Of a DNA stretch of 46,870 bases, positions 1 to 28,823 are shown in pieces. Every line of letters starts with the position of its first letter. Within the stretch, counting starts at the first letter, position 1. The stretch is from the NCBI GenBank assembly GCA_929200405.1, contig CAKMZF010000001.1, forward strand, positions 1 through 46,870, given 5' to 3'. This DNA is from an uncultured Gammaproteobacteria bacterium (GTDB taxonomy: Bacteria; Pseudomonadota; Gammaproteobacteria; Cardiobacteriales; CAKMZF01). Below the pieces are notes generated by a model. That model saw only the letters and a program-made list of their open reading frames with translations. It ran no database searches and had not been told where the DNA came from. A program made the position numbers and the translations under genes.

Positions 1-242
1 AATCTGAGACTCATTTTATGGAGACGATGTTGATGGCAGAGTGATTGGAGAATGACGATATCTATCCGGCTTTAATAACGTGAAGGGTGTTAGGGTAGTG
101 ACTCGCTTATCATCAGGAGTTTCTTTATCAAATGAGGCGCCAACTTTTGAGCGTGAGAATTACATCTATGTTGAAATCAGTAGGGAATATAGAGCAATAT
201 TTATATGAATCAGACGAATGCAAGTATTTCTTCGGTCACTAG
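1..242. other. Unassigned degraded DNA at the window edge
   Basis: No intact gene is visible here. One forward frame gives protein-like stretches broken by stops, for example a segment with VKGVRVVTRLSSGVSLSNEA around 80-145, so this may be decayed coding sequence. I cannot assign it to a family. It may belong to the same remnant as the pseudogene that follows or to a gene that extends off the window. Confidence 0.35.
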
Positions 243-700
243 GGTTATTTAATAGATACAAGTGATGCTCCAAGAGAAGCAAACGCAACATACAATGGAA
301 GCAACGTCAGCTATATGATATTTAACTCAGCAACTGGTGGAGCAAATGCACCAACTCTTGTAATTGGAAGCAACACAATAAGTTTTTCTGCTGACTATTG
401 AAAATTGCACAGTAAGTGTCAGCTCAATTGATATTGATCATGGACCCTATACAACCGATGTGGAATTCTCTGTAGCATCTATTTCTGATGCAACTTTCTC
501 AGGAGATGCGAAAATTTTCATTACTAGCCCAATCGCACCGCACGTTAGTGTCAATACATGGATAAACTATGCGCTCCACAAGTCTACGAACTAATCGGCA
601 GTTTGAGGCTGCAGGTCTGTTCAACAGTCAAGGATCTGATTTTTCAATTTTTGGCGCCAATATAGTTAATTGTGACGTCAGTACTTTTTATTTTTTATAA
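243..700 (+). pseudogene. Frameshifted remnant of a TbpB-like (transferrin-binding-protein-like) surface lipoprotein
   Basis: Three consecutive forward-frame fragments read as one protein. Positions 243-401 give GYLIDTSDAPREANATYNGS onward to FSADY and a stop. Positions 400-594 continue one base out of frame with ENCTVSVSSID and ISDATFSGDA. Positions 596-700, again out of frame, give RQFEAAGLFNSQGSDFSIFG. The order (Y-x-T-x-SD-P, then ATY-x-G, then an F-x-ADF/Y-x-x-x-TVSVS strand, then FSG-x-A, then E-A-A-G-x-F) resembles the C-terminal beta-barrel of TbpB-like or Slam-dependent lipoproteins. At least two frameshifts separate the pieces, and no start, signal peptide or lipobox is visible. Family assignment is from memory of the motif pattern; that the DNA is decayed is seen directly. 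Confidence 0.45.
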
Positions 701-785
701 GCGAAGTTGTTTTCAAAATGTAATAATGGACGAGTAGTTTCAGGATTCCCAAACTTTTTAGTTAAGAAGGTAAAGTAGACGCTTT

Positions 786-2516
786 GTGATTAAAAAAAAT
801 CATAATACAGAACGTAATGTAAGAGTATTCCCATCGGAGCTGTTGAATGGGAGTTGGTTATTTGGCAGGTTTGAGGGGCATTTTGAAAGAGCCGGAGACC
901 AAATAAGGGTTGTTAGAGGGGTTATTCATTCGTCTCACTTTACCAAACAGCCTCCAATTGCGACTGCAGATGACATTATTCAAAGTACTCTTCCTTTAGC
1001 ATGGGTTGAATTTGCTGCTGATGCTTCTATGCGAACTAAGGAAAATAAAGTTCAATCGGTTGTTTTGCATGATTTGGTTTTCAGCGAATGCCAATTAGAA
1101 GATTTAAAAGTTGTTAGTGGTGTATCTTATGGCCATATTCATGCCGTTGTGTGGGCCAAATGCCAGCCATCTAGTGGTAGTAAGGCAAGTTTTTCGGCAA
1201 CTGTTGATGAGAAGAATTCTCCAGTAAACTCTAGAGCTGTGGGGAAGTTAAAACAACTACTCTCTAATAAACAAAGTAGTCCATGGTTGTTGTTACCTTT
1301 ACTTTTATTTCTGTTGTTAGCTAATTTGTTTAGCTCTGATAGTGCTCTTAACTTTAACCCAAAAGACGATTTGCGCCGAGTCTTTTCGCCTTTGCTACCA
1401 GTCAATGATGGATTGGTTCAGAGTAAAGAAAATGATAAATCAAATAGCGATATAAGCATTGATGAGAATAAAAATAGCCTAGCAAATTTGGCAGATATTC
1501 CTGTGAATGGTTGGCTGCTAAGTTGTGATCAGAGTTTAAAGCTAAAATCTGAAGTCTTGTTTGAGTTTGGTCGAGCGAATTTACTGCCTGAAGCATCTGA
1601 GACATTAAAGAGTACAGGGTCAGTCTTTGAAAAAATAAGGTTAGATGGCACAATCGTCAAAATTACTGGTCATACCGATTCTTATGGGGAGCAAGATTAC
1701 AATTTGAAGCTCAGTTGGCGGCGAGCAGAAGCAATTGCAGATTGGTATATTCAACAAGGTCTGATGACCAAAAGTCAGGTGCTAATTCAAGGCAAAGGCG
1801 AGTTCGAGTTGATCATCAATGGTTCAAAATCTAAAGATGAGCAGTCTGAAAACAGACGAGTGGAAATATCACTGGTTTGCGACCGAAACAAACCTATTAC
1901 TGTGACGGAACGTCCTATTGCTTATTTTGCATTATTAGAGGAGATAAGGCGTCAATACGATATTGTGTTCTTGTCAGAAATTACTCCAACGCAAGATCCT
2001 GAGTTAGTGAGCGATCTTGACTCTAAACTAATGTTGTTAAGCCCGTTTAAGGGCATTGTGTTGGAAGAGGCTTTAGTAGAGCCGGAAATATTTTTCAATT
2101 CCTGCGGTAGGCCATTATTGTTGAGCTCAGATCTGCTGTTTGATTATAGTCGTGCAGGTTTGAAGGTTAGCGCATTGAAAGAGCTAAACCTTATCGCACA
2201 ATTACTCAAAGAATCTACTGACTCTAGCTTACGATTAAAAATAATTGGTCATACGGACTCGCATGGTAATGATCAATTTAATTTGCGACTGAGTTATAGA
2301 CGGGCGAACCGAGTCGCTAGATGGTTAGTAGAAAATGATTTGATCAAGAAAGATCATCTGGTTATTGAAGGCAGAGGAGAAAAGGATTTGATGGCGCCTG
2401 CCACTGGCTCTATTGAGGAGCAGAATATTAATCGAAGGGTAGAGATTACGGTGATATGTTCTTCTAAAAAGTTAGAGCTAAAAAGGATGAAAAATGCATC
2501 GACAGAAACTGAATAA
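786..2516 (+). CDS. Tandem OmpA-like (peptidoglycan-binding) domain protein with one internal membrane segment
   Basis: A 576-residue protein starting at GTG. It has no N-terminal signal peptide. Residues 1-163 are soluble and unrecognised. A hydrophobic Leu-rich segment lies at about 164-182. Two OmpA/MotB C-terminal domains follow. The first spans about 254-365, with TGHTDSYG near 294, then LSWRRA and NRRVEIS. The second spans about 447-555, with IGHTDSHG near 486, then LSYRRA and NRRVEIT. Both copies keep the Asp and Arg that bind diaminopimelate in this family. The likely topology is a cytoplasmic N-terminus, one membrane pass and a periplasmic pair of wall-anchoring domains. It overlaps the next gene by 23 bases and leads a four-gene cassette. 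Tandem OmpA domains behind an internal membrane helix are unusual; OmpA and MotB-type proteins normally carry one. Function unknown; anchoring an inner-membrane complex to the wall is inference. Confidence 0.85.
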   Translation: MIKKNHNTERNVRVFPSELLNGSWLFGRFEGHFERAGDQIRVVRGVIHSSHFTKQPPIATADDIIQSTLPLAWVEFAADASMRTKENKVQSVVLHDLVFSECQLEDLKVVSGVSYGHIHAVVWAKCQPSSGSKASFSATVDEKNSPVNSRAVGKLKQLLSNKQSSPWLLLPLLLFLLLANLFSSDSALNFNPKDDLRRVFSPLLPVNDGLVQSKENDKSNSDISIDENKNSLANLADIPVNGWLLSCDQSLKLKSEVLFEFGRANLLPEASETLKSTGSVFEKIRLDGTIVKITGHTDSYGEQDYNLKLSWRRAEAIADWYIQQGLMTKSQVLIQGKGEFELIINGSKSKDEQSENRRVEISLVCDRNKPITVTERPIAYFALLEEIRRQYDIVFLSEITPTQDPELVSDLDSKLMLLSPFKGIVLEEALVEPEIFFNSCGRPLLLSSDLLFDYSRAGLKVSALKELNLIAQLLKESTDSSLRLKIIGHTDSHGNDQFNLRLSYRRANRVARWLVENDLIKKDHLVIEGRGEKDLMAPATGSIEEQNINRRVEITVICSSKKLELKRMKNASTETE

Positions 2517-2985
2517 GATTAGGCAGACGTTCTTACCTGGCTTAAACGTGCATCAAATCACCTCTACAAAGCAGCGCTTTAATGGTGGGTATTTGGTGTT
2601 GGTACATTGTTATTTGACTGGTCTGGGTTATATAAAACTGCAAGATGTTAGACGTTTTATCATTGGCACAAAGCAGGTCTCGTTATTGGTGAAAGATCAG
2701 CAGTCGGAATTACACGTTTATTCATTGACCGGTAAAGAAATATATTCGATTGGGAAAATAGGCGATAGTTTTATTGACAGTTTACATGAGGTATCTACTC
2801 CTCAAATGAAATTGTCAGTTGATATTATAGAGGTTGTAATACCAAAAATTAGCGTAGGGCATCTAAGTCAGTTTTCCGGTGAAAAGTTGGTGGTGCCGAA
2901 TTTTTGTCGTTTTAATATCCAGACTAAGTTAAGCCAAGCAAAGCCTAAGCTTATTCGAATAAACCCCATTGAATTTAAAATTTAA
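2494..2985 (+). CDS. Hypothetical protein of the envelope cassette
   Basis: A 163-residue protein that I do not recognise. The ATG lies inside the end of the tandem-OmpA gene in another frame, preceded by GGATGAAAA as a weak ribosome site, so the two genes are probably translationally coupled. There is no signal peptide or clear membrane helix; a mildly hydrophobic stretch GGYLVLVHCYLTGLGYI sits at about 31-47. The composition suggests a mostly beta, basic, probably cytoplasmic protein. The next gene starts about 30 bases downstream. Its position between a wall-binding protein and a DUF4407 membrane protein suggests a part or accessory of the same assembly, but nothing in the sequence proves this. 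Confidence 0.7.
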   Translation: MHRQKLNKIRQTFLPGLNVHQITSTKQRFNGGYLVLVHCYLTGLGYIKLQDVRRFIIGTKQVSLLVKDQQSELHVYSLTGKEIYSIGKIGDSFIDSLHEVSTPQMKLSVDIIEVVIPKISVGHLSQFSGEKLVVPNFCRFNIQTKLSQAKPKLIRINPIEFKI

Positions 2986-3017
2986 GAGATGAGAAGTAAG
3001 TGAGTGTGGAGAAAAAT

Positions 3018-4337
3018 ATGCCGAATACACAAAATGAAGTGAAAACACAAAAGAGTAAACATGATGCCGGTGATAATTATGACTATGGCTCCCTAAAAGA
3101 CGTTTCCTGGTTTAGCCGGTTATTATGGTTTTCTGCTGGTGCAGATGCACAGTTACTGATGCGATGCCCTATGTCCGATAGAGTCAAATATCAAGGTCTA
3201 GGTGGCGTGGTTTTATCGGTTGGCATGCTAGCTTTTTTCTCTGGCTCATATGCGTTTTATGCTGTATTTTCACCCAAGGATGCTACGGTTTTGGGCGATT
3301 CATCTACTGATATATCAACAGTCGTACTATCGATTATATTCGGTATATTCTGGGCGATGATTATCTATAATCTAGACCGTTTTATTGTCTCTAGTACTGG
3401 TAAAGGTGATGGCACTGATCGTATAACCCTTACTGAATTTTTAAATGCTTTGCCGCGATTGCTTATGGCTCTGATTATTGGCCTCTGCTTAAGTAAGCCG
3501 TTAGAGATTAAGATTTTAGAATCAGAAATTAAAGCACAATTAGAACTAGAGCAGAATACTTATCTGCAAGAGCTAAATGAGCAAAGTGAGCAACTGGTTA
3601 CATCGCAACGCGCTCAGTTAAGAGAGAAGATGGATGAGCTGCAAAGCAGGATTGATGAAAGTGACAAGTTACTGGAAGATCGCCGTTTAGAAATCAACCA
3701 ACAGCGAAAAAATTTAGAGCTAGAAGCCGAGGGTAAAATAGGCTCTGGTTTTGCTGGTAGAGGCCCAGCTTGGCAAGATAAAAAAGATAACCTAGATAGA
3801 ATGCAGAGTGAGCTAGACCGAGACAGGTCTGCTATCCAGAAAACTAATCAATTAGTAATGGATGAGTTTAACGAGACCAAGCAGCAATTATCTGAACTAG
3901 ATCAAAAATTGTTAAACAAACAAGAGTCGAATAAACAATCCGCTAGGCACTTAGATGGCTTACTTAAAAGAATTCAAATTTCACATGAGATTGGTGGCTG
4001 GGTACCTTACGCCATCATGCTTTTGTTGCTGTGTATTGAGGCGGGCCCTATCTTCTTTAAGCTCATGCTGACTAAAGGCGCATATGACTATTTAGAAGAG
4101 AATCAGAAAAAGCTAGCTTGTGCTTCTATGGGTATAGAACCCAATGCGCATATTGTCTCAGATGACAAGGGTAATCCTTCTTTTGTCGACGAATATCACT
4201 CAGTAAAACATGCCCTATATGAGACAAAACTCAAGGTAGAAACCGAGCAAATGCTGGCAAATCAAGTTCATAATTCGTATCGGCAAAAGGTAAGCGAAGA
4301 TATCAGTGCTAACCCAGAAAAATATATAGAGTCATAG
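3018..4337 (+). CDS. DUF4407 family membrane protein with long coiled coil
   Basis: A 439-residue protein. Start chosen at ATG 3018 because GGAG sits six bases upstream; an in-frame GTG at 3000 is the alternative. The N-terminus is hydrophilic. Three hydrophobic segments follow at about 60-84, 101-119 and 143-162, including SGSYAFYAVF and YNLDRFIVSS, which fit DUF4407. Residues about 165-320 form a highly charged heptad-rich coiled coil full of Glu, Gln and Lys. A fourth membrane segment (YAIMLLLLCIEAGPIFFKLM) and a soluble tail close the protein. If the N-terminus is cytoplasmic, the coil lies in the periplasm, beside the wall-binding domains of the first cassette gene. DUF4407 has no established function that I know. 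The family call rests on this architecture and remembered motifs. Confidence 0.75.
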   Translation: MPNTQNEVKTQKSKHDAGDNYDYGSLKDVSWFSRLLWFSAGADAQLLMRCPMSDRVKYQGLGGVVLSVGMLAFFSGSYAFYAVFSPKDATVLGDSSTDISTVVLSIIFGIFWAMIIYNLDRFIVSSTGKGDGTDRITLTEFLNALPRLLMALIIGLCLSKPLEIKILESEIKAQLELEQNTYLQELNEQSEQLVTSQRAQLREKMDELQSRIDESDKLLEDRRLEINQQRKNLELEAEGKIGSGFAGRGPAWQDKKDNLDRMQSELDRDRSAIQKTNQLVMDEFNETKQQLSELDQKLLNKQESNKQSARHLDGLLKRIQISHEIGGWVPYAIMLLLLCIEAGPIFFKLMLTKGAYDYLEENQKKLACASMGIEPNAHIVSDDKGNPSFVDEYHSVKHALYETKLKVETEQMLANQVHNSYRQKVSEDISANPEKYIES

Positions 4338-4379
4338 CGTGTATAGCTGAGGAGAGCTTGAGATATAGAGCTGCTTGTA

Positions 4380-6632
4380 ATGAAGAAAAATGACAAGTCG
4401 AACAAGAGACAGAGTGATCAGTTGGATTTTTATGACTACTTAGTTCTCTGCTCCGGCTTTGATCGGAAGATTATCGCTCAGTTGCCGGAAAAGGGACAGA
4501 GAAGAATTAAGTATATAGTAGTGGCGACAATGCTCTCTGCTATTTATGGGGGGAGCTCTATTGTCTATGGTGCAGTTATTATCAAAGCGCCGATCTATGT
4601 TTGTTTTCTTTTGCTAATTCCCTGTTGTCTGTTTTGTTTAAATATCTTCCGGATGTTGAATGCGGGTAGTGGCTTCCATATGGGCCTAGATGGTGACTTA
4701 CTGCAAACATGGAAGCCCTCTCTATCCTCACAAATCTTTCTTTATATTCTAGGGTTGTTACTAACCGTCCCTGGGTCAATCTTTATCTTCTCAATTGTTC
4801 ATTTAGATATCGGACTAGGCTTAATAGAGCAAATGCAAGAGATGTGGCAGCACAAAATACAAGCGGTTGCAGTCACTCTGTTTAGCACATCGTTATTTTG
4901 TGCTTTTTCTTGGCTCAGAGCCTTCTTTATTTGGGAGATGAGAGACTATGAGTTGCTTCGTTGGTTTGAGGCTCGTGATCTAGTGGGAGCAGCATCGGAT
5001 CAGTCGAAAAAGTATTTAGCCGAATCGATAAAGCAATTTGGTCAATCTAAACCACAAGCAAAACGTCATTATCTCGATGAACCCTATAATTATCGTTTGA
5101 TGCTTTTTGGACATGAGGCAGGCAAAGTTGAAAAGAGCGAATTTGTTAGCATAGAGTCGGTTAAAGAAGAGTCAGTAAAAGAGGCGATATTTATTGAAAC
5201 GACCGAACATTATTATCGTAATTTTTTCAAGGCTCCAAGCAGTAACGAAGTGACGGACCTGCAAGTAGAAACGCTATTTGATCGAACTGTTGAAGCATTT
5301 TTGTTAGACCCAGCATTTACTCACAATGTAAAAAGCGTGGCTGGATATATAGGTCTGCAACAGCAGTCAATTGAGAAAAAGCTTTTTTATTCCGATTGCA
5401 GTGTAATTGTAAAAGACCTCTTTAAATTTGACCTAGAGAACAGGTCAATATTTCAAAGTGTGACTTTATTGGGAAAAAACCAACGCCCAGATAAAGTTCC
5501 AATTCAAATTTCTGCCAGAAAATTTACTTTACACACACCTGAATTATTGAGTTGCTATAACTGTGATCAATCTCTTTCGATAATCAACTCAAGTGTAGGA
5601 GAAGTTGGCTTTTGCGCGAGTTGTCATGGATATCTATTCTCAGAAACTAGCCTTCAAGCGCTCTATGGTCAGCGTATATTGAAAAAGAATTGGCAAGATA
5701 AGCAATTCACGTTTTACAAAGGTTATATTGAGCAACACTGTTTCAACGATTGCAAGTCACCGATGAATCAATATCAACTGAATTCATCGAATCCGAACTT
5801 TACCCCGAGCCGAAATAATATCTCTATTTTGCGCTGTCCTCAATGTTCGCTGTACTGGTTTGATGAAGGCCAGATTAAAGGGCTACTTGAGCTAACGCAG
5901 TATGAAAATTTGGCCCAACAAGAGGCCAATCAAAACGCCGGAGGCACAACCACTTATATTGCTCAATTGCTGACAGGTTTGCCTTTTAAGGTATACAATC
6001 CAGTAAAAAAAATTCCAACGGTATTGGTTAGTTTACTCCTCGTTATGGGCGTTATTTTCTTGCTACAACAAAGTGTAGATAAAGGGGTAAGTTTTGTTTT
6101 TCTACTATACCCAGACCAAGTTCTCTATAAACCGTGGGCATTAATAAGCAGTGCATTTATGCATGCCAATCTTTTTCACCTAGCCGGTAATGGCATTATG
6201 TTATGGCTATTTGGTGACAATATAGAAGATAAATATGGTTGGAAAACATTTCTACTGATCTTCTTGCTTTCTGCCATTGTTGGAAACCTTGTTCATGTCG
6301 CTGCAAATTTTGGCTCTAGTATAGGCTGCTTAGGCGCTTCTGGAGGTGTGTATGGAATTATGGCGGCCTACCTTGTATTTTTCAAATCCAGCAAAGTTTG
6401 GTGGGTGGTATTATTTGTTAGAGTCAAAGTTAGCCTTGTCTTGTTTTTACTATTTAGGATAGGAGTGGATATTTATGGACTACTATTTAGTATCGAGAAT
6501 ATTGCATGGTTTGCCCACATTGGAGGTTTTTTGACAGGGTTATGCATTGGTTATTTAGTTAAAAATCAGACTCTAAAAAATTGGCAAACTCTGGCAAGAA
6601 TCGCAAAAACTAAAAAGATTATATCGAAATAA
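4380..6632 (+). CDS. Rhomboid intramembrane serine protease fused to zinc-ribbon and N-terminal membrane regions
   Basis: A 750-residue protein. Two to four hydrophobic segments lie between about 45 and 185, followed by a soluble region. A zinc-ribbon region of the TFIIB-like zf type has CYNC near 391, CASC near 415 and CPQC near 486, followed by WFDEGQIKGLLEL. The C-terminal 200 residues are a rhomboid domain: HANLFHLAGNGIMLWLFGD near 590-610, GASGGVYG with the nucleophile Ser654, and AHIGG with His713. The catalytic pair is intact, so active cleavage within or next to membranes is expected. Rhomboids are usually much shorter (roughly 200-300 residues). The gap to the DUF4407 gene is 42 bases and the ribosome site is weak. 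A cassette membrane protein could be its substrate; this is inference. Confidence 0.85.
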   Translation: MKKNDKSNKRQSDQLDFYDYLVLCSGFDRKIIAQLPEKGQRRIKYIVVATMLSAIYGGSSIVYGAVIIKAPIYVCFLLLIPCCLFCLNIFRMLNAGSGFHMGLDGDLLQTWKPSLSSQIFLYILGLLLTVPGSIFIFSIVHLDIGLGLIEQMQEMWQHKIQAVAVTLFSTSLFCAFSWLRAFFIWEMRDYELLRWFEARDLVGAASDQSKKYLAESIKQFGQSKPQAKRHYLDEPYNYRLMLFGHEAGKVEKSEFVSIESVKEESVKEAIFIETTEHYYRNFFKAPSSNEVTDLQVETLFDRTVEAFLLDPAFTHNVKSVAGYIGLQQQSIEKKLFYSDCSVIVKDLFKFDLENRSIFQSVTLLGKNQRPDKVPIQISARKFTLHTPELLSCYNCDQSLSIINSSVGEVGFCASCHGYLFSETSLQALYGQRILKKNWQDKQFTFYKGYIEQHCFNDCKSPMNQYQLNSSNPNFTPSRNNISILRCPQCSLYWFDEGQIKGLLELTQYENLAQQEANQNAGGTTTYIAQLLTGLPFKVYNPVKKIPTVLVSLLLVMGVIFLLQQSVDKGVSFVFLLYPDQVLYKPWALISSAFMHANLFHLAGNGIMLWLFGDNIEDKYGWKTFLLIFLLSAIVGNLVHVAANFGSSIGCLGASGGVYGIMAAYLVFFKSSKVWWVVLFVRVKVSLVLFLLFRIGVDIYGLLFSIENIAWFAHIGGFLTGLCIGYLVKNQTLKNWQTLARIAKTKKIISK

Positions 6633-13981: not shown

Positions 13982-14902
13982 TTAATGCCGATCTAAGTGA
14001 TAAAAACGTTTGGCATTTTCTGCGAACAGCAAGGTAATTTGATCGTCATTCAGACCGCTTGTTTTGGCACATTGCAATAGTTCGTCGACGACCTCATCAT
14101 AGCTTTTCATTAGCTTATCAACTGGATAATTACTGCCAAACATCATTCTCTCTACGCCAAATTGTGCTAATAAAGTATCAAATAGCGTTTGAATGCTATT
14201 GGCTGACCAGTTCGTATCAAACATGCCAAATCCTGAGAGTTTGACGTGGCAGTTTGGTAAAGCAGCGAGGTGTTGCATAGCTGTTGTCCAGCCTTGTAAT
14301 CCCTGCTCAGTTTGGTCATAAGGGCTGCCAGCATGGTCTATAGCGATTGGCACGGTGGGATACTGTGCCAGAAAGTTAGCAGCTGACTGCATTTGCTCAG
14401 GGTATAGCTGTAAATCAAAACTCAGTCGATGTTTGGCTAATAAAGTAAAGTTCTCGCGCCATTGCGGATTTTCTAGGTATTTTTCTTTGGTAAAACTGAT
14501 GCTAGGGTTATCGCTGAGTTTGCTGAGGATTTGACGGACACCTCTGAAGTTTGGCAATGCAAGGTAGCGATGTAGCGTTTTCTCAACTATGGTAGTGTTG
14601 GCACTAAGGTCTAAAAAACCGATATGTACTAGTGGCAATTGATTAGCTAGGGAGTGTTCCTCAAGCCAGAGAGATTCGATGACAGGGTCTGCAATAGCGC
14701 CGTCAGCTTGCACATGAATAGAGCCAATGATCTGATGGTGCTGAGACTCGTCCTGAAACTCAGGCGCCAAATAATCTCGTTGTATTGCAGTGGGGTCTCC
14801 AAATGGTTTGATCGCACCAATATTTTTTAACCAGACATATTCTATGCCAAGAGAATCAGAATCAGGACACCAGAGATGGTGATGAGCATCAATAATTTCC
14901 AT
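13982..14902 (-). CDS. Amidohydrolase family protein, lactonase type (COG3618-like)
   Basis: About 306 residues. I start at the ATG giving MEIIDAHHHLW because GGAGAG lies upstream and the family begins there; an ATG 18 bases earlier overlaps the upstream gene. The fold is a TIM-barrel amidohydrolase of the group with 2-pyrone-4,6-dicarboxylate hydrolase and L-rhamnono/L-fuconolactonases. Visible features are the HHH motif at strand one, SIHVQAD, FRGVRQIL, AIDHAGSP and MFGSNYPVDKL. In many relatives the last motif carries a catalytic Asp (GSDWP); here it is Asn, as I recall for one subgroup. A lactone ring-opening step in the island's pathway is the likeliest role. It is translated after the double-SnoaL gene from the divergent promoter. 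Confidence 0.8.
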   Translation of the reverse strand: MEIIDAHHHLWCPDSDSLGIEYVWLKNIGAIKPFGDPTAIQRDYLAPEFQDESQHHQIIGSIHVQADGAIADPVIESLWLEEHSLANQLPLVHIGFLDLSANTTIVEKTLHRYLALPNFRGVRQILSKLSDNPSISFTKEKYLENPQWRENFTLLAKHRLSFDLQLYPEQMQSAANFLAQYPTVPIAIDHAGSPYDQTEQGLQGWTTAMQHLAALPNCHVKLSGFGMFDTNWSANSIQTLFDTLLAQFGVERMMFGSNYPVDKLMKSYDEVVDELLQCAKTSGLNDDQITLLFAENAKRFYHLDRH

Positions 14903-14909
14903 AATATTT

Positions 14910-15944
14910 TTACTCTCCATATCCCTCTGGTAAGTTCAGCGCAGGCTGACCACGCAGATGTTTGAGTCTGGCAAATACATCAAAACCCATTTGTTTTAAC
15001 ATGTGAATAATATCAATTGGCACCCAGTTTTCGGCGATTCTTCCATCTACGAGATGGTAAAAGTCCATTACGCGCATTTGTATAACTTTGCCAGTCGCTG
15101 GCATGCCAAGCCATTCGCCTAGATGTGTGCCTGTCACAGAGGGCCAGCCCCCTGTGACAACGTAATCACCGTCACCAATTCTGACATAGTGGCCGCTGCC
15201 TTGACGATCAGGAAAGCCTACTAAGAAGGGGATTTGATGGTGGGCACGAAATCCGGACATGCTGCGTGTGGTACCAATTCCTGCCGGACCATACCAAAGG
15301 AAATTGTCTGTCCAATATTGTTGGTGTTGCATGCTATTTAAATCTTTGCCATCGAAGCTGAGAAGGGCATTGTGCATGGCAATCACGGTATTAAATGCGC
15401 TATCGCCTTGTGCTGGTTCACTGCTGTTGAGTCTAACGCCATCATGAGTAGCAGGGTGCTGCCACATGCCTTCGGCACCTAGAGAGGGCATTAATGGCCA
15501 GACGTTGGCTTGTCGCATTAAATCTAGTAGATCAAAAAGCACATATGAGTGTGCGATTTTGCCATCCACTATTGAATGTACTTCACAACTACGCAAGGTG
15601 ACTACGCCTTTTGTTGCTGGAATGCCACAGAGATCTTGCTGAAAAGTGCCTTGGTAACAGCCCATACTGGCAACTAAGATTCTACCAGTTAATGCTTCTG
15701 ATACGCGGTTATCGGCTTTGCTTTCGCCTACGACAAATATGCTATCTCGGCGCTCCATATCGGGTAGGGCTGTTCTGAGTTGCTGCCAGATTGCAGAAAT
15801 GTCAGTATGGCCTTGCACTTCATTAAAAGGGTGGCAGCCCCACCATTGAGCATCGCTATGGTAGCAGTTACTGACGTCGCCATCTTTGCTAAGCTGGTGT
15901 AGTTGTTGGTAAGTTTGTTGCTTTATTTGAGTGAAATCAGTCAC
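14910..15944 (-). CDS. Double SnoaL-like (NTF2-fold) protein A
   Basis: A 344-residue protein with two SnoaL/NTF2-fold domains, about 5-150 and 185-330. The second contains WYGPAGIGT, GFRAHHQIPFL, MPATGKVIQMRVMDFYHLVDGRIAENWV and a closing DVFARLKH. These motifs recur in the protein at 22803-23879, so the two are paralogues. The fold covers polyketide cyclases, ketosteroid-isomerase-like enzymes, dehydratases and dehydrohalogenases, and also non-enzymes. No signal peptide is present, so it is cytoplasmic. It is first in the minus-strand pair and faces the ABC importer operon across the operator region. Isomerase, dehydratase or aldol-type chemistry on the imported compound is plausible, but the reaction is unknown. 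Confidence 0.8.
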   Translation of the reverse strand: MTDFTQIKQQTYQQLHQLSKDGDVSNCYHSDAQWWGCHPFNEVQGHTDISAIWQQLRTALPDMERRDSIFVVGESKADNRVSEALTGRILVASMGCYQGTFQQDLCGIPATKGVVTLRSCEVHSIVDGKIAHSYVLFDLLDLMRQANVWPLMPSLGAEGMWQHPATHDGVRLNSSEPAQGDSAFNTVIAMHNALLSFDGKDLNSMQHQQYWTDNFLWYGPAGIGTTRSMSGFRAHHQIPFLVGFPDRQGSGHYVRIGDGDYVVTGGWPSVTGTHLGEWLGMPATGKVIQMRVMDFYHLVDGRIAENWVPIDIIHMLKQMGFDVFARLKHLRGQPALNLPEGYGE

Positions 15945-16031
15945 GATATTGAGTGCTCCATAGCTCTGGGGTTACTAAAAATCCCGCTTTTTTGATGCGC
16001 GGCATTCTATCTCAAAAAATTTTGAGAAACA

Positions 16032-16051
16032 GTTTGCATTCGTATGCAAAC
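16032..16051. promoter_or_regulatory. LacI-type operator in the divergent promoter
   Basis: Perfect arms GTTTGCAT and ATGCAAAC flank the centre TCGT, giving a 20-base site with a central CG, the usual form of LacI/GalR-family operators. It lies in the 317-base region (15945-16261) between the double-SnoaL gene on minus and the ABC ATPase gene on plus, and the LacI gene is nearby. Another perfect palindrome, AAAGATATCTTT, lies at 16109-16120 in the same region. The rest is AT-rich, and I did not fix -10 and -35 boxes with confidence. Confidence 0.65.
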
Positions 16052-16261
16052 GATGGCAAGATATTTCTACTCGTTTTTTAATTGCAATATTATAAAGATT
16101 GATTTACGAAAGATATCTTTTATAAATATTCATAAACACTAAAAATAAGCGTGGACTTTTTATAAGGTAGATTTTAGAGGCTATTTGGCGCTAATCATCT
16201 GAATAGCCTTATCATTGAATTGCAAAGAGTTACGTAATGAAAAGCAGGAATTGGGAGTAGT

Positions 16262-17317
16262 ATGGCTGAGATCAATCTAAAAGGTATCTGTAAACGCTGG
16301 GGAAGTTTTGTCGGCGTACATGACTTTAATCTCAAGATTGCTGATCGAGAATTTTTGGTATTGCTTGGACCGTCTGGCTGTGGCAAAACCACCACAATGC
16401 GCATGATTGCTGGCCTTGAAGATATAACCGAGGGTGAGATAACGATTGACGGTAAAGTTGTGAATAACTTAGAGCCTAAAGATCGCGATATAGCTATGGT
16501 GTTTCAGTCCTATGGTTTATATCCGAATATGAATGTTTATGAAAATATTCGGTTTCCGCTCAAAGTTCGCAAAATAGACCCTGCTACCCATGATGAGAAA
16601 GTAATGAAAGCTGCGGAGCGCTCTGAGCTTGTTGACTTCTTACACCGCAAACCAGCTGAGTTATCCGGTGGACAGCGCCAAAGAGTGGCACTTGCCAGAG
16701 CGATTGTTCGCGAGCCGAGTGTGTTTTTGATGGATGAGCCGCTATCTAACCTGGATGCTAAGTTAAGGGTCTCCACTCGTGCACAGATTAAGAATCTTCA
16801 GCATGAGCTAAAAGTAACCACTATTTACGTCACCCATGATCAAATTGAGGCCATGACTTTGGCAGATCGTGTTGTGGTGATGAAAAAAGGTTTAATACAA
16901 CAGGTTGGTGTGCCAACAGAAATATATGACAAACCTGCCAATGCGTTTGTGGCAAGTTTTATCGGTTCTCCGGCTATGAATTTGTTGGAGGGGGAAATAT
17001 CTGATGGCACTTTTACTGGCAAGAATGTATCGGTGTCGGGTTTCCCCAAAACGCTTAGCGGCAAAATTACTTTAGGTTTCCGTGCTGAGGATGCCACAAT
17101 TAATGCAACGGAGTCTGCGGAAGTGAATTCAGCTGTGTATAGTTTTGAGCTACTGGGGGATGCTACCATGGTAAATGTAAAAGCAGGTGGCGCGTTAATT
17201 TCAGTAAAAGCGGAAAAAACCTTTAGGGCGGGGATTGGAGAGAATGTTTCTATTTCAGTTCCTGTAGATATCTGCCATTTATTCTCAGCGGAGGATGGCA
17301 TGAGAGTTGAGTTCTAA
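16262..17317 (+). CDS. CUT1-type sugar ABC transporter ATP-binding protein (UgpC/MalK-like)
   Basis: A 351-residue ATPase, the first gene of the importer operon, with GGGAG before the ATG. Walker A is GPSGCGKT near 36-43, the Q-loop is MVFQSYGLYPNMNVYENI, the signature LSGGQRQRVALARAIVR, and Walker B VFLMDEPLSNLDAKLR, followed by YVTHDQIEAMTLADR. The C-terminal 110 residues form the TOBE/OB regulatory domain typical of MalK/UgpC. This architecture is specific to carbohydrate, polyol and glycerol-phosphate importers. It pairs with the two permeases and the binding protein downstream and drives uptake of the island's substrate. Confidence 0.93.
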   Translation: MAEINLKGICKRWGSFVGVHDFNLKIADREFLVLLGPSGCGKTTTMRMIAGLEDITEGEITIDGKVVNNLEPKDRDIAMVFQSYGLYPNMNVYENIRFPLKVRKIDPATHDEKVMKAAERSELVDFLHRKPAELSGGQRQRVALARAIVREPSVFLMDEPLSNLDAKLRVSTRAQIKNLQHELKVTTIYVTHDQIEAMTLADRVVVMKKGLIQQVGVPTEIYDKPANAFVASFIGSPAMNLLEGEISDGTFTGKNVSVSGFPKTLSGKITLGFRAEDATINATESAEVNSAVYSFELLGDATMVNVKAGGALISVKAEKTFRAGIGENVSISVPVDICHLFSAEDGMRVEF

Positions 17318-17345
17318 GACTCAATTTCCACTCGGCTTTAGCCGA
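17307..17345 (+). promoter_or_regulatory. Two small hairpins between importer ATPase and binding-protein genes
   Basis: TTGAGT (17307-17312) and ACTCAA (17319-17324) pair around the ATPase stop codon, and TCGGC (17332-17336) pairs with GCCGA (17341-17345) around TTTA. No T-run follows, so they are not classic terminators. They may stabilise the ends of processed transcripts and help raise the level of the binding-protein mRNA. Confidence 0.3.
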
Positions 17346-17401
17346 TAATAATAGAGTGTCGTAAGGCAATTGTAATACTAGCAAAAACTAGGGAGAGAAT
17401 A

Positions 17402-18631
17402 ATGATTTTTAAAAAAGCGCTATTGGCTGGTGCCGTAATGATGGCTTCCACGCTTACTTATGCAGAATGTAAGGTTGATGGTGGTAGAGTGAGCATTGTC
17501 GGCAATGAATTTCCAGCCATTCATACAGTAGCGAATGTAGCAGTAGCTTGTGAAGGTATTGATGGAAAATCTAACCTAACAGCAGACCATCAGAAAATAA
17601 ATGTTGCGGGTATGCAAGGCAATCCTGCGGAATATACATCGGCAATTATCGCTAACTCATCTATCGTTGCTTTGATGAACGAAGATGTGATTCGTCCACT
17701 AAACGATTTGGTGGAAAAATATGGGCAGGATATTCCTAAGAAACAGTTGATTACTATCGATGGCGATGTCATGGCAGTTGCCTTTATGGCGAATGCACAG
17801 CACCTAGTATACCGAGCTGATGTACTAGAGCAGATTGGCGTTGAAGTGCCAAAAACTTATGAAGACTTATTGGCTGCCGCAAAGCTTATTCGTGAGAAAG
17901 GCATTATGGACAACCCCGTAGGCGGCGCTTACAAAGCAGGTTGGAATCTAGGTGAAGAGTTTGTCAATATGTATTTAGGATTTGGCGGACAGTTCTATAA
18001 AGCAGGCAGTGCAGAAGTCTCTGTGAATAATGAGCAGGGTGTTGCGACACTGGAAATGTTGAAGTCATTAACCGAGTACATGAATCCAGATTATTTAACC
18101 CATGACTCAAATGCGACCAATGCTGAGTGGGAAGCAGGTAATGTTGCGCTAATGAATATGTGGGGTTCACGTGTAGGCTCAATATTGGATGATGAAGGTT
18201 CTACACCAGAGATTGTTGCTGCTACTAAAGTAGCTGGGCCTATGGCAGTAGGTGGCGGAAGCCAGCCAGCCTCTACACTATGGTGGGATGGATGGACTGT
18301 TGCGAAAAATATCTCTGATGAAGATGCCGCAGCAACATTCCAAGCTCTGGCACATGCAACTAGTGCTGCTATCTTAAATGATGAAACCATGGGGCAAGCT
18401 GTTTGGATGATAGATGGTTATAAGCCAGCAGCTGTCAACGAAGGGGTGTTTGCTGCTATTGATGCGAAAACCACGCCTTATCCAATGCTGCCTTATCAAG
18501 GCTTATTGCACACAGTTTTGGGTGACAATGTTGCAGACTTCCTACAGGGGAAAGAGAGTGCTGAGCAAACCCTCAAAGATATTGAGGCAGCTTACACAGC
18601 AGCAGCTAAAGAAAAAGGCTTCTTAAAGTAA
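17402..18631 (+). CDS. CUT1-type extracellular solute-binding protein (family 1)
   Basis: A 409-residue periplasmic binding protein with GGGAGAG before the ATG. The signal peptide is MIFKKALLAGAVMMASTLTYA, cleaved before ECK. Family-1 features are an N-lobe segment SAIIANSSIVALMNEDVIRPLNDLVEKYG, YRADVLEQIGVEVPKTYEDLLAAAKLI, WEAGNVALMNMWGSR, and a C-lobe with WWDGWTVAKN. Trp and other aromatics in the cleft (WNLGEEF, WGSR, WWDGW) fit a carbohydrate or polyol ligand but do not identify it. A strong hairpin follows the gene, as often seen when binding protein is made in excess over the permeases. Confidence 0.92.
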   Translation: MIFKKALLAGAVMMASTLTYAECKVDGGRVSIVGNEFPAIHTVANVAVACEGIDGKSNLTADHQKINVAGMQGNPAEYTSAIIANSSIVALMNEDVIRPLNDLVEKYGQDIPKKQLITIDGDVMAVAFMANAQHLVYRADVLEQIGVEVPKTYEDLLAAAKLIREKGIMDNPVGGAYKAGWNLGEEFVNMYLGFGGQFYKAGSAEVSVNNEQGVATLEMLKSLTEYMNPDYLTHDSNATNAEWEAGNVALMNMWGSRVGSILDDEGSTPEIVAATKVAGPMAVGGGSQPASTLWWDGWTVAKNISDEDAAATFQALAHATSAAILNDETMGQAVWMIDGYKPAAVNEGVFAAIDAKTTPYPMLPYQGLLHTVLGDNVADFLQGKESAEQTLKDIEAAYTAAAKEKGFLK

Positions 18632-18642
18632 GTCAATTTCAA

Positions 18643-18667
18643 GGACGTTAAATTAACTTTAACGTCC
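18643..18667 (+). promoter_or_regulatory. Perfect 10-bp hairpin after the binding-protein gene
   Basis: GGACGTTAAA and TTTAACGTCC are perfectly complementary around the loop TTAAC, just 11 bases past the stop codon. The following bases (CTCGATT) lack a T-run. Such intercistronic hairpins, as after malE, stabilise the upstream mRNA and lower expression of the permeases. That role here is inference from position. Confidence 0.6.
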
Positions 18668-18748
18668 CTCGATTATGAAATGTTGACTGCGTAATGTTTT
18701 GTCAGATGCTGAAATTTTCCTTCACACACTAATTGGTTAGATAGCGAT

Positions 18749-19771
18749 ATGACTCATAAATCTTTTTTCTGGTTTGTTCTACCATCCAGCTTAGCCATGC
18801 TATTGTTTATTTTCTTTCCGATTGTATCCGTCATTGTACAATCGCTGCATGTTGACCATGAGCAGGTGATTGTTAGTGTTGAAAACTGCGACTTATTTGG
18901 TTGCACTGAGTCGACTAAAATAGATCAAGAAGCAACAGAAGCGCTAAGAGCAGAGCAACCACTGGGGAGATTTGCAGGATTAACGACCTATTTTGACCGT
19001 AATCATTTAGCCACAGCAGAACTGAAAGAGAGTTGGGAAACCGCAGATAATTGGCGAGATTTCGGTAGCCAATTATTAAATCTTCCGTTTTATAAAGCGA
19101 TTGGCTTTACCTTAGCCTTTACTTTTGTCGTCACCCCACTGGTAATTATGTTGGGCTTTGCGATAGCGGTAGCAGTCAACAGTGCAGCCAAGGTGTTGCG
19201 TGGACCACTGATATTTTTCTCATTATTGCCAATGATGGTAACTCCTTTAATTGGTTCACTGATTTTATTTTGGATGATTGATGCTCGAGGGGTGATTGGC
19301 ACCCTGCTGCAATACCTAGCAGGGGACCCTGAGTTATCGATAAAAGCCTCAACTCCATTGATGTGGATTATGTTGATGGTTTATGGGGTTTGGCATGCAG
19401 CACCTTTTGCGTTCATTGTTTATTACGCAGGTCTTCAAACAGTGAATAGTGAAACACTAGAGGCCGCACAGATTGATGGTGCGAGCCGTTGGGAGCAGAT
19501 TCGTTATGTTGTGATTCCACATTTACTGCCATTGACAACTTTTATTGCATTGATGCAACTAATGGATAACTTCCGAGTGTTTGAACCCATTGTCAGTTTT
19601 GCGGCGAGTGCACACGCCACCTCTTTGTCATGGGCTATATATAACGATCTAGGCGGAGAGACCCGACAATTATCCTCAGCGGCAGCGACCTCAGTGCTAA
19701 CAATCCTAGGGGTGGCAATATTACTATTCCCAGTGCTGGTTCGGACTTGGCGTGACTTCAATAAAAAGTAA
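18749..19771 (+). CDS. CUT1-type ABC transporter permease (MalF/UgpA-like)
   Basis: A 340-residue inner-membrane permease. The first membrane helix (residues about 8-30) is followed by a hydrophilic periplasmic insertion of about 80 residues with a Cys pair (NCDLFGC) before the core of five further helices. The cytoplasmic EAA loop, EAAQIDGASRWEQIRYVVIPHLLP, contacts the ATPase. The insertion is like the P2 region of MalF, though much shorter. It is co-transcribed with the second permease, whose start lies 18 bases beyond its stop. Confidence 0.92.
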   Translation: MTHKSFFWFVLPSSLAMLLFIFFPIVSVIVQSLHVDHEQVIVSVENCDLFGCTESTKIDQEATEALRAEQPLGRFAGLTTYFDRNHLATAELKESWETADNWRDFGSQLLNLPFYKAIGFTLAFTFVVTPLVIMLGFAIAVAVNSAAKVLRGPLIFFSLLPMMVTPLIGSLILFWMIDARGVIGTLLQYLAGDPELSIKASTPLMWIMLMVYGVWHAAPFAFIVYYAGLQTVNSETLEAAQIDGASRWEQIRYVVIPHLLPLTTFIALMQLMDNFRVFEPIVSFAASAHATSLSWAIYNDLGGETRQLSSAAATSVLTILGVAILLFPVLVRTWRDFNKK

Positions 19772-19789
19772 TTAGAGAGTAGAAATGGT

Positions 19790-20671
19790 ATGAATACACA
19801 ACCCACAAAAAAGCCTTTTCTGATTCAAACCTTAGTTTTTTCAGTGTTGGTTATCTGGATGGTGCTGGCAGCATTTCCATTTCTATGGACGCTGTGGGGA
19901 TCATTTAAAGTAGAAGGCGATTTTTTCTCCAAAGCAGATTGGCTAAATGTGATATCAGGTAAGCTTACCGAAGTAGAAACAGGTGGCAAGTTTACCGGTG
20001 CTGGTTATGAAGGGGCGTGGATTCAAGAAGAATTTTGGCGTGCCGCGCTAAAGTCCGCCATTGTCTGCGTTTTTGTTGTTACCATCTCCCTGACCTTTGG
20101 CACGCTAGGCGGCTATGCCTTGGCGCGTTCTGGTTATCGCTATGCTTTTTGGTTTCTTATTATTGCCTTGATCTTCCGCGCTATGCCGCCGATTACTTTA
20201 GTTTCAGGCTATCTGCCGGTATTCTTTACCTGGAATTTATGGGGTCACTTAACTACCGCGATTATCGTGTTGGTTGCGATCAACCAGCCATTTACTTTAT
20301 GGATGTTGCATTCTTTCTTTAAAAACATACCTCAAGATCTTGATGAGAGTGCGATGGTAGACGGCTGCACCCGATTTCAAGCATTTAGACATGTCATTAT
20401 CCCAGTAATGTGGCCAGGTGTAGTGACCACTGGACTATTCTCATTTTTATTAGCGTATAACGACTTTGCCGTGACCGCGGTCATTTTGTCTAAAGAAAAC
20501 CAAACGATGATTCCTAAAATTGCCAGCTTTTTAGGTACAACGCAAACTAAAGGGAATGTGATGTTTGCAGTGTCGGCAGTTGTGTCAGCCACAGCGCCAT
20601 TGTTTGTGATGGTAATGGTTTTTCAACGACAGATTGTTTCTGGTCTTACCGCTGGAGCTGTTAAAGGCTAG
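19790..20671 (+). CDS. CUT1-type ABC transporter permease (MalG/UgpE-like)
   Basis: A 293-residue permease with six hydrophobic segments. The EAA-type loop is ESAMVDGCTRFQAFRHVIIPVMWP, and the C-terminal sequence VFQRQIVSGLTAGAVKG is the classic MalG-like tail. A periplasmic loop between the first two helices holds an insertion including VISGKLTEVETGGKF. It completes the four-part importer with the ATPase, binding protein and the MalF-like subunit. A 180-base gap follows before the enzyme genes, in which I saw no convincing terminator. Confidence 0.92.
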   Translation: MNTQPTKKPFLIQTLVFSVLVIWMVLAAFPFLWTLWGSFKVEGDFFSKADWLNVISGKLTEVETGGKFTGAGYEGAWIQEEFWRAALKSAIVCVFVVTISLTFGTLGGYALARSGYRYAFWFLIIALIFRAMPPITLVSGYLPVFFTWNLWGHLTTAIIVLVAINQPFTLWMLHSFFKNIPQDLDESAMVDGCTRFQAFRHVIIPVMWPGVVTTGLFSFLLAYNDFAVTAVILSKENQTMIPKIASFLGTTQTKGNVMFAVSAVVSATAPLFVMVMVFQRQIVSGLTAGAVKG

Positions 20672-20851
20672 TCAATAGAGCTATAGAACAGCCGCAAGAT
20701 TTTCAAGCGATGCAGTTTGGTCTAAATGGTTCAACTGTATAACAACAGACAACTAGAAAACGCACCGATTTAAGCTCTGCTAATTGGTGGGATATCTACT
20801 GCCTAGAACGGCTATTTATTAGCGTAGTATTGTAAACATTGGAGTCTATTT

Positions 20852-21394
20852 ATGAAAGGTTCGCGCCCTGAGCAGGCATATCTCTCTAAAGATACGGATA
20901 TATCAAAAACTGAGGATACTCGACGAGTTATTGAGAGCATGGTTGATGGGTTAAATGACCATCGTATTACAGATATTGGTGAATTTTTTTCTGAGCAGTT
21001 TCGTTGGATGGGAAACCAAGGCTGCGGGACTAAAAATGGTTTGCGAGAATTTCAAGATAATTGGCAAAGGCCTTTTCAGGCAGCTTTCTCAGATAAGGTT
21101 TGCATAGATGAAGCGCGATTATATATGGGGGAGTGGGCGGCTGCATTTGGTCGTCAAGAAGCCATACACAGTGGTGAGTTTATGGGGGTTTCCGCTACCG
21201 GTAAAAAAGTGGAAATTCGCTATATGGATTTTTGGAAGGTGGTTGATGGGAAAATTGTTGATAATTGGGTCTCGGTCGATTTTCCGCATGTGCTCTCGCA
21301 GCTAGGAGTGGATGTGTTTAATGGGAAGGGCTGGGAAACCTATGACTGTGGAGATGCCATTGCGCCCGAACCTCAGACTAACGTGCCTGAATAG
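20852..21394 (+). CDS. Single-domain SnoaL-like (NTF2-fold) protein C
   Basis: A 180-residue protein with GGAGTC before the ATG. One SnoaL-like domain covers about residues 25-155. The core [20 protein letters not shown] then [20 protein letters not shown] and GVDVF closely matches the second domains of the double-SnoaL proteins at 14910-15944 and 22803-23879, so it is the same subfamily in single-copy form. No signal peptide. The first enzyme gene after the importer. Function unknown beyond the fold. Confidence 0.8.
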
Positions 21395-21444
21395 GACGAT
21401 ACAAAACAGATGTAATAGAATTTCAGGTTTTTCAGGAGTTTCCT

Positions 21445-22782
21445 ATGATTAGATATTTAAAGACCGCAAAGAGTGCGGCCGAAAGAAATGAAGATGATGC
21501 CAAAGTACGGGCAATCGTTGAGAGCACGTTGGCTGAGATTGAGCAGCAGGGCGATCAAAAAGTAAGAGCACTTTCTGAGCAGTTTGATGGCTTGAGCAGA
21601 GAGTCTTACCGACTGAGTGAAGAGGAGATAGCACAGGCTATGTCTGAGGTATCTGAGCAGGAACTGGCTGATATCAAATTTGCTCAGGATCAAATTCGTA
21701 ACTTCGCAGAGCATCAAAAAGCGTCGATGTTAGATGTAGAGGTCGAGACTTTGCCTGGAGTGATTTTAGGCCACAAAAATATTCCTGTGAACTCGGTGGG
21801 CTGCTATGTTCCTGGAGGAAAATTCCCGATGGTTGCCTCTGCGCATATGAGCGTCTTAACAGCAAAGGTGGCAGGAGTGAAACGAATTATTGCTGCGGCA
21901 CCACCGTATAAAGGCAAGCCCCATCCGGCCATTGTCACTGCCATGCATTTGGCTGGAGCAGATGAGATTTATGTACTGGGTGGAATGCAGGCAGTAGGCG
22001 CTATGGCGCTTGGAACCGAAACTATAGAGTCTGTGGACATGTTGGTCGGACCGGGAAATGCTTTTGTAGCTGAGGCAAAACGTCAACTCTATGGCCGTGT
22101 GGGCATTGATCTTTTCGCTGGACCAACTGAAACTATGGTGATCGCAGATCCCGAAGCAGAGGGTGTTGATGGTGAACTCTGTGCCACCGATTTGTTGGGG
22201 CAGGCTGAGCATGGTTATAACTCTCCAGCAGTTTTACTGACTAATTCTGAGCAGCTAGCGCAGGATACGATGGCTGAGATTGAGCGACTATTGCAGATAT
22301 TGCCAACCGCAGAAACCGCAGCTAAGTCTTGGCAGGAATATGGCGAGGTGATTGTTTGTGATACTTATGAGGAGATGCTAGAGCAGGCAGATTTTTATGC
22401 TTCTGAGCATGTTCAGGTAATGACGACGAGAGATGACTGGTTTCTTGAGAATATGACCAGTTACGGAGCGTTGTTTTTAGGCGCTCGCACCAATGTTTCC
22501 TATGGCGATAAAGTGATTGGTACAAATCACACTTTGCCGACCAAAAAAGCAGGGCGTTATACTGGCGGACTGTGGGTGGGCAAATTTATTAAAACCCATT
22601 CATATCAAAAAATAATGACCGATGAGGCGTCTGCTTTGGTGGGGGAATATTGTTCTAGGCTTTGTGCCTTAGAGCACTTTGCAGGGCATGGTGAACAGGC
22701 CAATATAAGAGTTCGTCGCTATGGTGGGGTAGATGTGCCTTATGCAGGTGCTGCGGCAGTTTCTGATGCTTCGAAGCGATAG
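21445..22782 (+). CDS. Histidinol-dehydrogenase-like NAD-dependent alcohol dehydrogenase (HpsN-type)
   Basis: A 445-residue HisD-family enzyme with AGGAG before the ATG. Residues matching the HisD zinc and catalytic sites are present: Gln253 and His256 in GQAEHG, Glu321-His322 in SEHVQVMT, Asp355 in [15 protein letters not shown], and His411 in [10 protein letters not shown]. Histidinol dehydrogenase oxidises an alcohol to a carboxylate in two NAD-dependent steps. The N-terminal [17 protein letters not shown] and the [16 protein letters not shown] segment recall HpsN, which oxidises sulfopropanediol, rather than biosynthetic HisD. No other his gene is nearby. A four-electron oxidation of a primary alcohol in the island's pathway is likely; the substrate is not known. 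Confidence 0.88.
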
Positions 22783-22802
22783 CTTTGCTTTAGGAATATG
22801 CC

Positions 22803-23879: not shown

Positions 23880-23917
23880 ATATCTACATTATTGATTAAT
23901 GAGGCGATGGTACAGAC

Positions 23918-24712: not shown

Positions 24713-24822
24713 TATCTACCGAGATTTTACGAACGAGCGAATCAACGAATAAACCACTACACAAGCAAAGAGAGCCAATCTCTATTGGTTGGTATAGCGG
24801 AAGAATATTAAGGAAACTTGAG

Positions 24823-25797: not shown

Positions 25798-25842
25798 TTT
25801 ACCGACCTTCACTGACTCAATATATTCTATGGAAAATCAAAG

Positions 25843-26832: not shown

Positions 26833-26873
26833 TTAATGACATTATCACGAGCTAAATGTAAATGGAGACAGCA

Positions 26874-28013: not shown

Positions 28014-28054
28014 CTCGCCTAAGACAACTAATAGGTAGCTGAAATGGAAAGTAA

Positions 28055-28756: not shown

Positions 28757-28823
28757 GACAGTCTCATTTATCTAATTCCCGTGTGTTTTACATAACTTTA
28801 TAACCTGTTTAAAAGGAAGCTTT

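What the first reader, a model, noticed from the sequence alone, without database searches (positions are those of the whole stretch)
786..6632. Four-gene envelope cassette: tandem OmpA, unknown, DUF4407, zinc-ribbon rhomboid
The genes lie on one strand with an overlap or short gaps. Wall-binding domains, a long presumably periplasmic coiled coil and an intramembrane protease suggest a single trans-envelope assembly with regulated cleavage. The layout vaguely recalls ion-channel/stator type complexes (MotAB, ZorAB), but no MotA-like protein is present, so a defence or motor role is speculation.
Basis: partly seen in the sequence, partly recalled or inferred. Interest (0 to 1): 0.65.

Follow-up and report, generated by a model that had tools for sequence, protein, structure and literature searches.

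The report
DUF4407–OmpA envelope cassette with swappable proteases
Four adjacent genes encode a membrane assembly, predicted to be fixed to the bacterial cell wall, that recurs in distantly related bacteria with different protein-cutting enzymes attached (a rhomboid here, a caspase-like enzyme in relatives), which suggests an undescribed envelope sensor that works by cutting proteins.

Summary
The four genes lie on one strand with a 23-base overlap and 14- and 42-base gaps. The rhomboid gene is a fusion: its first ~250 residues are a second, diverged DUF4407-type subunit (B), followed by two zinc ribbons and an intact rhomboid. The cassette is a conserved operon. Of 25 further loci with a close DUF4407 relative (24 distinct; Myxococcota, Burkholderiales, Methylophilus, Mariprofundus, Bacteroidota), all 22 not cut by a contig end next to that gene hold its partner gene: a cytosolic domain new to Pfam, transmembrane helices and usually OmpA. 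Most also hold a small β-type protein and B; 11 hold a third DUF4407 protein. The rhomboid belongs to this window only. In nine Burkholderiales-side loci (eight distinct), subunit B carries a caspase domain instead; Methylophilus has a degenerate one; other proteases (papain, M41-like) sit beside some cassettes. So the scaffold is old and mobile, and the protease is exchanged. Best reading: a wall-anchored, protease-loaded envelope sensor or switch. Components, operon conservation and protease exchange are shown; complex formation, sensing and cleavage are inferred. A defence role is untested; a MotA-like motor is not supported. No paper found describes the system.

The parts
786..2516 (+). 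g1, 576 aa: cytosolic β-type domain 'ND' (aa ~17-163), one TM (166-184), two periplasmic OmpA-C (peptidoglycan-binding) domains
   Evidence: Pfam OmpA in two stretches; hydropathy; ND found by a leave-one-out HMM at E=4.9e-6; ND-OmpA genes in the relatives' cassettes
2494..2985 (+). g2, 163 aa, probable member of the small β-type protein family encoded directly before DUF4407
   Evidence: position; rank 14 of 1625 ORFs with a Myxococcota-type g2 profile, E=0.045, all 13 above and the next 3 below being g2 proteins; in the full leave-one-out test it is not significant (E=3.2)
3000..4337 (+). g3 / subunit A, 445 aa: DUF4407; 4 TM and a ~10 nm periplasmic helical hairpin between TM3 and TM4; invariant E347-x2-P-x3-K in TM4; conserved hairpin tip (G253, G255)
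   Evidence: PF14362 6.9e-63; alignment A3; AF2 model, mean pLDDT 78.5; conservation by region
4380..5130 (+). g4 N-terminal part / subunit B (aa 1-~250): second DUF4407-type membrane domain with 4 TM
   Evidence: BLASTP g3 vs g4 E=0.003; phmmer vs relatives' B proteins down to 4e-19; iterated HMM links it to A and C; B profile 8e-38
5550..5900 (+). two predicted cytosolic zinc ribbons (CYNC392, CASC412; CFNDC454, CPQC486) linking B to the rhomboid
   Evidence: motifs; PF13453 E=2.6e-4, below its cut-off; the same ribbon-ribbon-rhomboid order as standalone Pseudoalteromonas and Salinivibrio genes
5970..6632 (+). rhomboid protease domain with intact GASG (Ser654), AHIGG (His713) and HxxxxHxxxN motifs
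   Evidence: PF01694 3.2e-29; motifs; the only rhomboid match at E<=1e-5 in this genome

Best explanation
The cassette encodes one inner-membrane complex anchored to the cell wall. DUF4407 subunits A and B (and C in some relatives) form the membrane core. A's hairpin reaches ~10 nm into the periplasm, where its conserved tip touches a partner. The g1 protein ties peptidoglycan (two OmpA domains) through one helix to a cytosolic domain, and the small g2 protein binds on the cytosolic side. The complex senses a disturbance of the wall or envelope and passes it to a protease built into subunit B: here a rhomboid, in Burkholderiales-side relatives a caspase placed between TM3 and TM4. The protease then cuts a membrane or periplasmic target, as signalling or cell-restricting proteolysis. 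Shown: domain content, operon conservation, homology of g4's N-terminus to DUF4407, and exchange of the protease class on the same subunit. Inferred: assembly into one complex, topology in the cell, sensing, and the cut target.
For: The ND-OmpA / g2 / A / B / (C) cassette recurs in 25 other A-type loci; absent parts mostly coincide with contig ends. Caspase PF00656 in subunit B at 4e-25 to 8e-32 in the seven intact B proteins scanned and by profile in nine loci, with His/Cys motifs present in the eight checked. A relic without the dyad in Methylophilus. Intact rhomboid in the window's B. Further proteases beside cassettes: papain PF00112 in L083 and directly after C in L091/L092, an M41-like peptidase shared by L082 and L089 and a signal-peptide caspase in L089. 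The hairpin tip is better conserved than its arms (0.65 vs 0.42/0.39) and E347-P350-K354 is present in 21/21 A proteins. The A tree puts the window with Myxococcota (100/99), against organism kinship, and no A-type gene over the Pfam cut-off was found in the relatives searched, so it is probably mobile.
Against: No experiment or complex prediction shows physical assembly. The rhomboid fusion is a single case in one metagenome-assembled contig. Myxococcota B proteins, the closest relatives, have no recognised protease. Several g1-type proteins show no OmpA match (L078, L080, L094) and two loci lack a recognised B (L081, L096). Substrate and trigger are unknown. Enrichment of proteases in the flanks was not tested statistically.
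Confidence: 0.5

Rival explanations
1. Anti-phage abortive-infection system analogous to Zorya: a wall-anchored sensor detects envelope perturbation by infecting phage and the protease kills or arrests the cell.
For: Patchy, apparently mobile distribution; exchangeable protease modules including caspase, a known effector type in bacterial immunity (own knowledge); OmpA domains of g1 match ZorB models.
Against: The ZorB match is only the shared OmpA domain. Flanks are mostly metabolic, with isolated PADLOC hits. No hits in plasmids for g3 or in viral contigs for the A family.
Confidence: 0.25
2. Regulated intramembrane proteolysis for envelope stress or wall remodelling in the host's own interest (RseP/GlpG-like quality control), with no defence role.
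For: Rhomboid and caspase placement at the membrane or periplasm; wall-binding domains; chromosomal context among metabolic genes; OmpA reported in 14 of 217 metacaspase operons (PMC3501461).
Against: No A-type gene in the relatives sampled in the same order, which is unusual for housekeeping quality control.
Confidence: 0.3
3. Ion-driven force generator: an invariant transmembrane acid in A (E347) with a wall anchor forms a stator-like motor.
For: E-x2-P-x3-K in TM4 in 21/21 A proteins and in standalone DUF4407 proteins of Bacteroidota and one cyanobacterium; OmpA-anchored partner.
Against: No MotA/ExbB family match, no ZorA match, no secure structural match in the PDB; the long stretch between TM3 and TM4 is predicted periplasmic, unlike the cytoplasmic part of MotA.
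Confidence: 0.12
4. The B-rhomboid fusion is an assembly or annotation artefact, the rest being an ordinary conserved operon.
For: Single instance in one fragmented assembly of 226 contigs.
Against: One uninterrupted 750-codon frame with like base composition in both halves (0.393/0.381); every catalytic motif intact.
Confidence: 0.07

Closest known systems
Zorya anti-phage systems (ZorA-ZorB; PMC11890865, abstract only)
   Same: Inner-membrane complex with an OmpA-type wall-binding partner; exchangeable effector genes
   Different: No MotA-like ZorA; DUF4407 core with a predicted periplasmic, not cytoplasmic, coiled coil; protease built into a core subunit; unknown cytosolic ND domain
Prokaryotic metacaspase operons with OmpA (Asplund-Samuelsson 2012, PMC3501461)
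   Same: OmpA noted in 14 of 217 metacaspase operons, possibly including this cassette
   Different: The operon section read describes no DUF4407 core and no exchange of caspase with rhomboid
DUF4407 (PF14362)
   Same: Subunit A is a clear member
   Different: Function unknown; standalone copies in Bacteroidota lack the cassette; B is a diverged paralogue below the Pfam cut-off
Zinc-ribbon rhomboids of Pseudoalteromonas/Salinivibrio
   Same: Same ribbon-ribbon-rhomboid order, 26-28% identity over g4 391-750
   Different: Standalone, paired with a ~210-aa hypothetical gene, no DUF4407 fused
GlpG rhomboid
   Same: Catalytic motifs; NCBIfam match E=9e-15
   Different: Far below the equivalog cut-off (55 vs 250 bits); fused to B and zinc ribbons

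Membership tests
DUF4407 (PF14362), subunit A | match over the curated score | tested here: met
   213 bits vs cut-off 31.3
DUF4407-type membrane domain, subunit B (g4 aa 1-250) | profile-level homology to the DUF4407 N-terminal three-TM part | tested here: met
   BLASTP 0.003; iterated profile joins A, B and C; g4 itself is not a Pfam DUF4407 hit
Rhomboid protease | Rhomboid Pfam match with GxSG serine and AHxGG histidine | tested here: met
   PF01694 102 bits; GASG652, AHIGG712
Rhomboid protease | proteolytic activity | not testable with these tools
   no assay possible
Zorya / MotAB-type stator | MotA/ExbB (ZorA) subunit | tested here: not met
   no MotA_ExbB Pfam match and no ZorA PADLOC match in any of the four proteins
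Zorya / MotAB-type stator | OmpA-domain partner with a single TM | tested here: met
   g1 topology and OmpA domains; ZorB models match through OmpA
Zorya | ZorC/D/E effectors nearby | tested here: inconclusive
   g1-g4 show no such match; the next genes downstream read as an ABC transporter but were not scanned with PADLOC; nothing upstream is visible (contig start)
Caspase-type relatives (subunit B, L083, L086-L093) | Peptidase_C14 with His/Cys dyad | tested here: met
   PF00656 4e-25 to 8e-32 in the seven intact B proteins scanned; SGHG/DACR motifs in seven of the eight checked, L090 with DGHG and EACR
Anti-phage defence system | protection against phage | not testable with these tools
   flank survey shows no defence island but says nothing about function

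The most novel reading that the evidence does not exclude
A previously undescribed class of wall-anchored bacterial machines in which a DUF4407 hetero-oligomer senses envelope damage (for instance by phage entry) and fires a swappable built-in protease, caspase or rhomboid, from the same subunit.
Probability: 0.35. Interest if true: 0.85.

Novelty: categorically new. Interest (0 to 1): 0.62.

Why it matters
It gives a first genomic and mechanistic frame for DUF4407, which only three open-access papers name, none in title or abstract. It defines a conserved cassette that can be tested as a unit, and shows different protease classes replacing one another on one subunit of a predicted wall-anchored assembly. 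If the sensing model is right, it links envelope mechanics to caspase- or rhomboid-type proteolysis in bacteria.

Tried and rejected
Homology of g4's middle part (aa 206-395) with the C-terminal helical repeats of Myxococcota B proteins: not supported. g2 by a full leave-one-out profile: E=3.2, so only probable. PDB look-alikes for subunit A (best Foldseek E 0.03, long-helix coincidences) and for the ND domain (no Foldseek match at E<=0.001; VIA Z at most 3.3, several Hcp/tail-tube folds at Z 2-3, too weak to use). Viral contigs (none) and plasmids (none for g3). Parts labelled g4M, g4Zn and g2 are stale-file artefacts and were ignored. Searches centred on Myxococcota or Burkholderiales genomes were not accepted by the tool, so frequencies there are unknown. 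A possible rhomboid cut site in g1's TM (LLLA-NLF) fits a remembered substrate motif, but so loose a match is not evidence.

Full report
Observation. They form a tight unit: 23-nt overlap, 14- and 42-nt gaps. The window is the start of contig 1 of a 2.64 Mb, 226-contig assembly. Only short frames lie before the cassette, and an opposite-strand gene set that reads as a branched-chain or urea-type ABC transporter follows (own reading of the translations).

The rhomboid gene is a fusion. The N-terminal parts of g3 and g4 align (22% identity, E=0.003) in the same three-TM region. phmmer with g4's first 210 residues finds the gene following DUF4407 in many relatives (down to 4e-19), and iterating that profile gathers the A, B and C proteins. 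A motif after TM4 (DxPYNxR-like) is shared with the Myxococcota B proteins. From residue ~390 on, g4 matches standalone zinc-ribbon rhomboids of Pseudoalteromonas and Salinivibrio. So g4 = subunit B + two zinc ribbons + intact rhomboid (catalytic motifs).

The cassette is conserved. A two-sequence DUF4407 profile scan of one genome per species gave 31 loci. With family profiles, 25 of them (L072-L096; L091 and L092 gave matching gene sets and scores and are counted once as distinct) have a close A-type DUF4407. Of the 22 whose contig is not cut next to A (L075, L082 and L086 are), all carry the ND and/or OmpA gene. g2 is detected in 22 of 25 and B in 23 of 25 (exceptions L081, L096). A third DUF4407 protein, C, is present in 11, all in the Pseudomonadota-side group. 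The ND gene lies before g2 or after B. Leave-one-out tests support the ND family (window E=4.9e-6; other Pseudomonadota and Myxococcota members 8e-9 to 1e-35; the Bacteroidota members are weak or missed) and the g2 family in most loci, the window's g2 being only probable. More distant DUF4407 genes in Bacteroidota and cyanobacteria (L097-L102) show none of the other parts.

Exchange of proteases. In nine loci on the Burkholderiales side (L083, L086-L093; eight distinct) subunit B contains a caspase domain between TM3 and TM4 (Pfam 4e-25 to 8e-32 in the seven scanned), with catalytic motifs present. Methylophilus L084 keeps a recognisable but motif-less remnant (E about 1e-6). Beside some cassettes lie a papain+DUF4384 gene (L083, L091/L092), an M41-like peptidase gene shared by L082 and L089 (5.7e-72; M41 appears among the flank families), a signal-peptide caspase (L089), and in L085 an ND protein with a weak transglutaminase-like match. 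In the window B carries a rhomboid. Different protease classes on the same subunit are the strongest hint that the output is proteolysis.

Anatomy. Hydropathy gives g1 one TM (N inside, OmpA outside by inference), A four TM with a 173-residue stretch between TM3 and TM4, and B four TM plus the rhomboid helices. AlphaFold on 21 A sequences gives mean pLDDT 78.5, pTM 0.54: four TM helices and a long helical hairpin (174-243, 256-316). Conservation is low along the arms (0.42, 0.39) and higher at the tip (0.65), as expected for a contact site. E347-x2-P350-x3-K354 in TM4 is in 21/21 A proteins and in standalone DUF4407 of Bacteroidota and one cyanobacterium. Foldseek finds no secure PDB match for A. 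The ND model (from L087, pLDDT 78.5, five long strands) matches nothing securely.

Spread. The A tree groups the window with four loci, three of them labelled Myxococcota (100/99), apart from the other Pseudomonadota. In the relatives searched only the window's own gene passes the Pfam cut-off. Cassette GC is 0.391 against 0.426 for the window. Transfer is the simplest account. Flanks of ten low-GC loci contain mostly metabolic genes with a few isolated PADLOC matches, so no defence-island signal.

Literature. DUF4407 appears in three open-access papers, in none of their titles or abstracts. OmpA was noted in 14 of 217 metacaspase operons in 2012 (PMC3501461). No description of this cassette was found; subscription journals were not searchable, so 'categorically new' means new against what could be searched here and my own knowledge.

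Verdict. Real, conserved, and not a member of a system I can name. The mechanism (wall-anchored sensor with built-in protease) is an inference with about even odds; defence is possible but unproven; a stator-type motor is unlikely.

Noticed in passing
window 1-785: AT-rich stretch with only short frames (some read like a broken surface-protein gene) at the contig start, before the cassette.
   Followed up: no
L089 12965-14431 and L082 5438-7294: Homologous M41/FtsH-like peptidase proteins near two unrelated cassettes (Polynucleobacter, Myxococcales), E=5.7e-72.
   Followed up: partly
L083 3044-4846; L091 12391-14049: Papain-family protease with DUF4384 beside the cassette; directly after subunit C in L091/L092.
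   Followed up: partly
L089 12361-12939; L091 14162-15958: SLOG/YAcAr-type proteins near the cassette in two loci, a domain linked elsewhere to ligand sensing in conflict systems (own knowledge).
   Followed up: no
L084 9291-11027: Degenerate caspase domain without the His/Cys dyad in subunit B of Methylophilus: a possible pseudo-protease.
   Followed up: partly
L084 5425-7410, L087 5615-7402, L088 5629-7392, L090 5576-7339, L091 5439-7376: Zinc-ribbon-like cysteine clusters precede the ND domain in these g1 proteins, so zinc ribbons recur on the presumed cytosolic side of this system.
   Followed up: partly
window 13982-29555: Probable catabolic cluster: ABC transporter, several SnoaL-like proteins, histidinol-dehydrogenase-like and MetE-like proteins (by eye); substrate unknown.
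   Followed up: no
window 4380-6632 (own genome G000): Only one rhomboid match at E<=1e-5 in this genome, the fused one in g4; no separate GlpG seen (genome 91.5% complete).
   Followed up: partly
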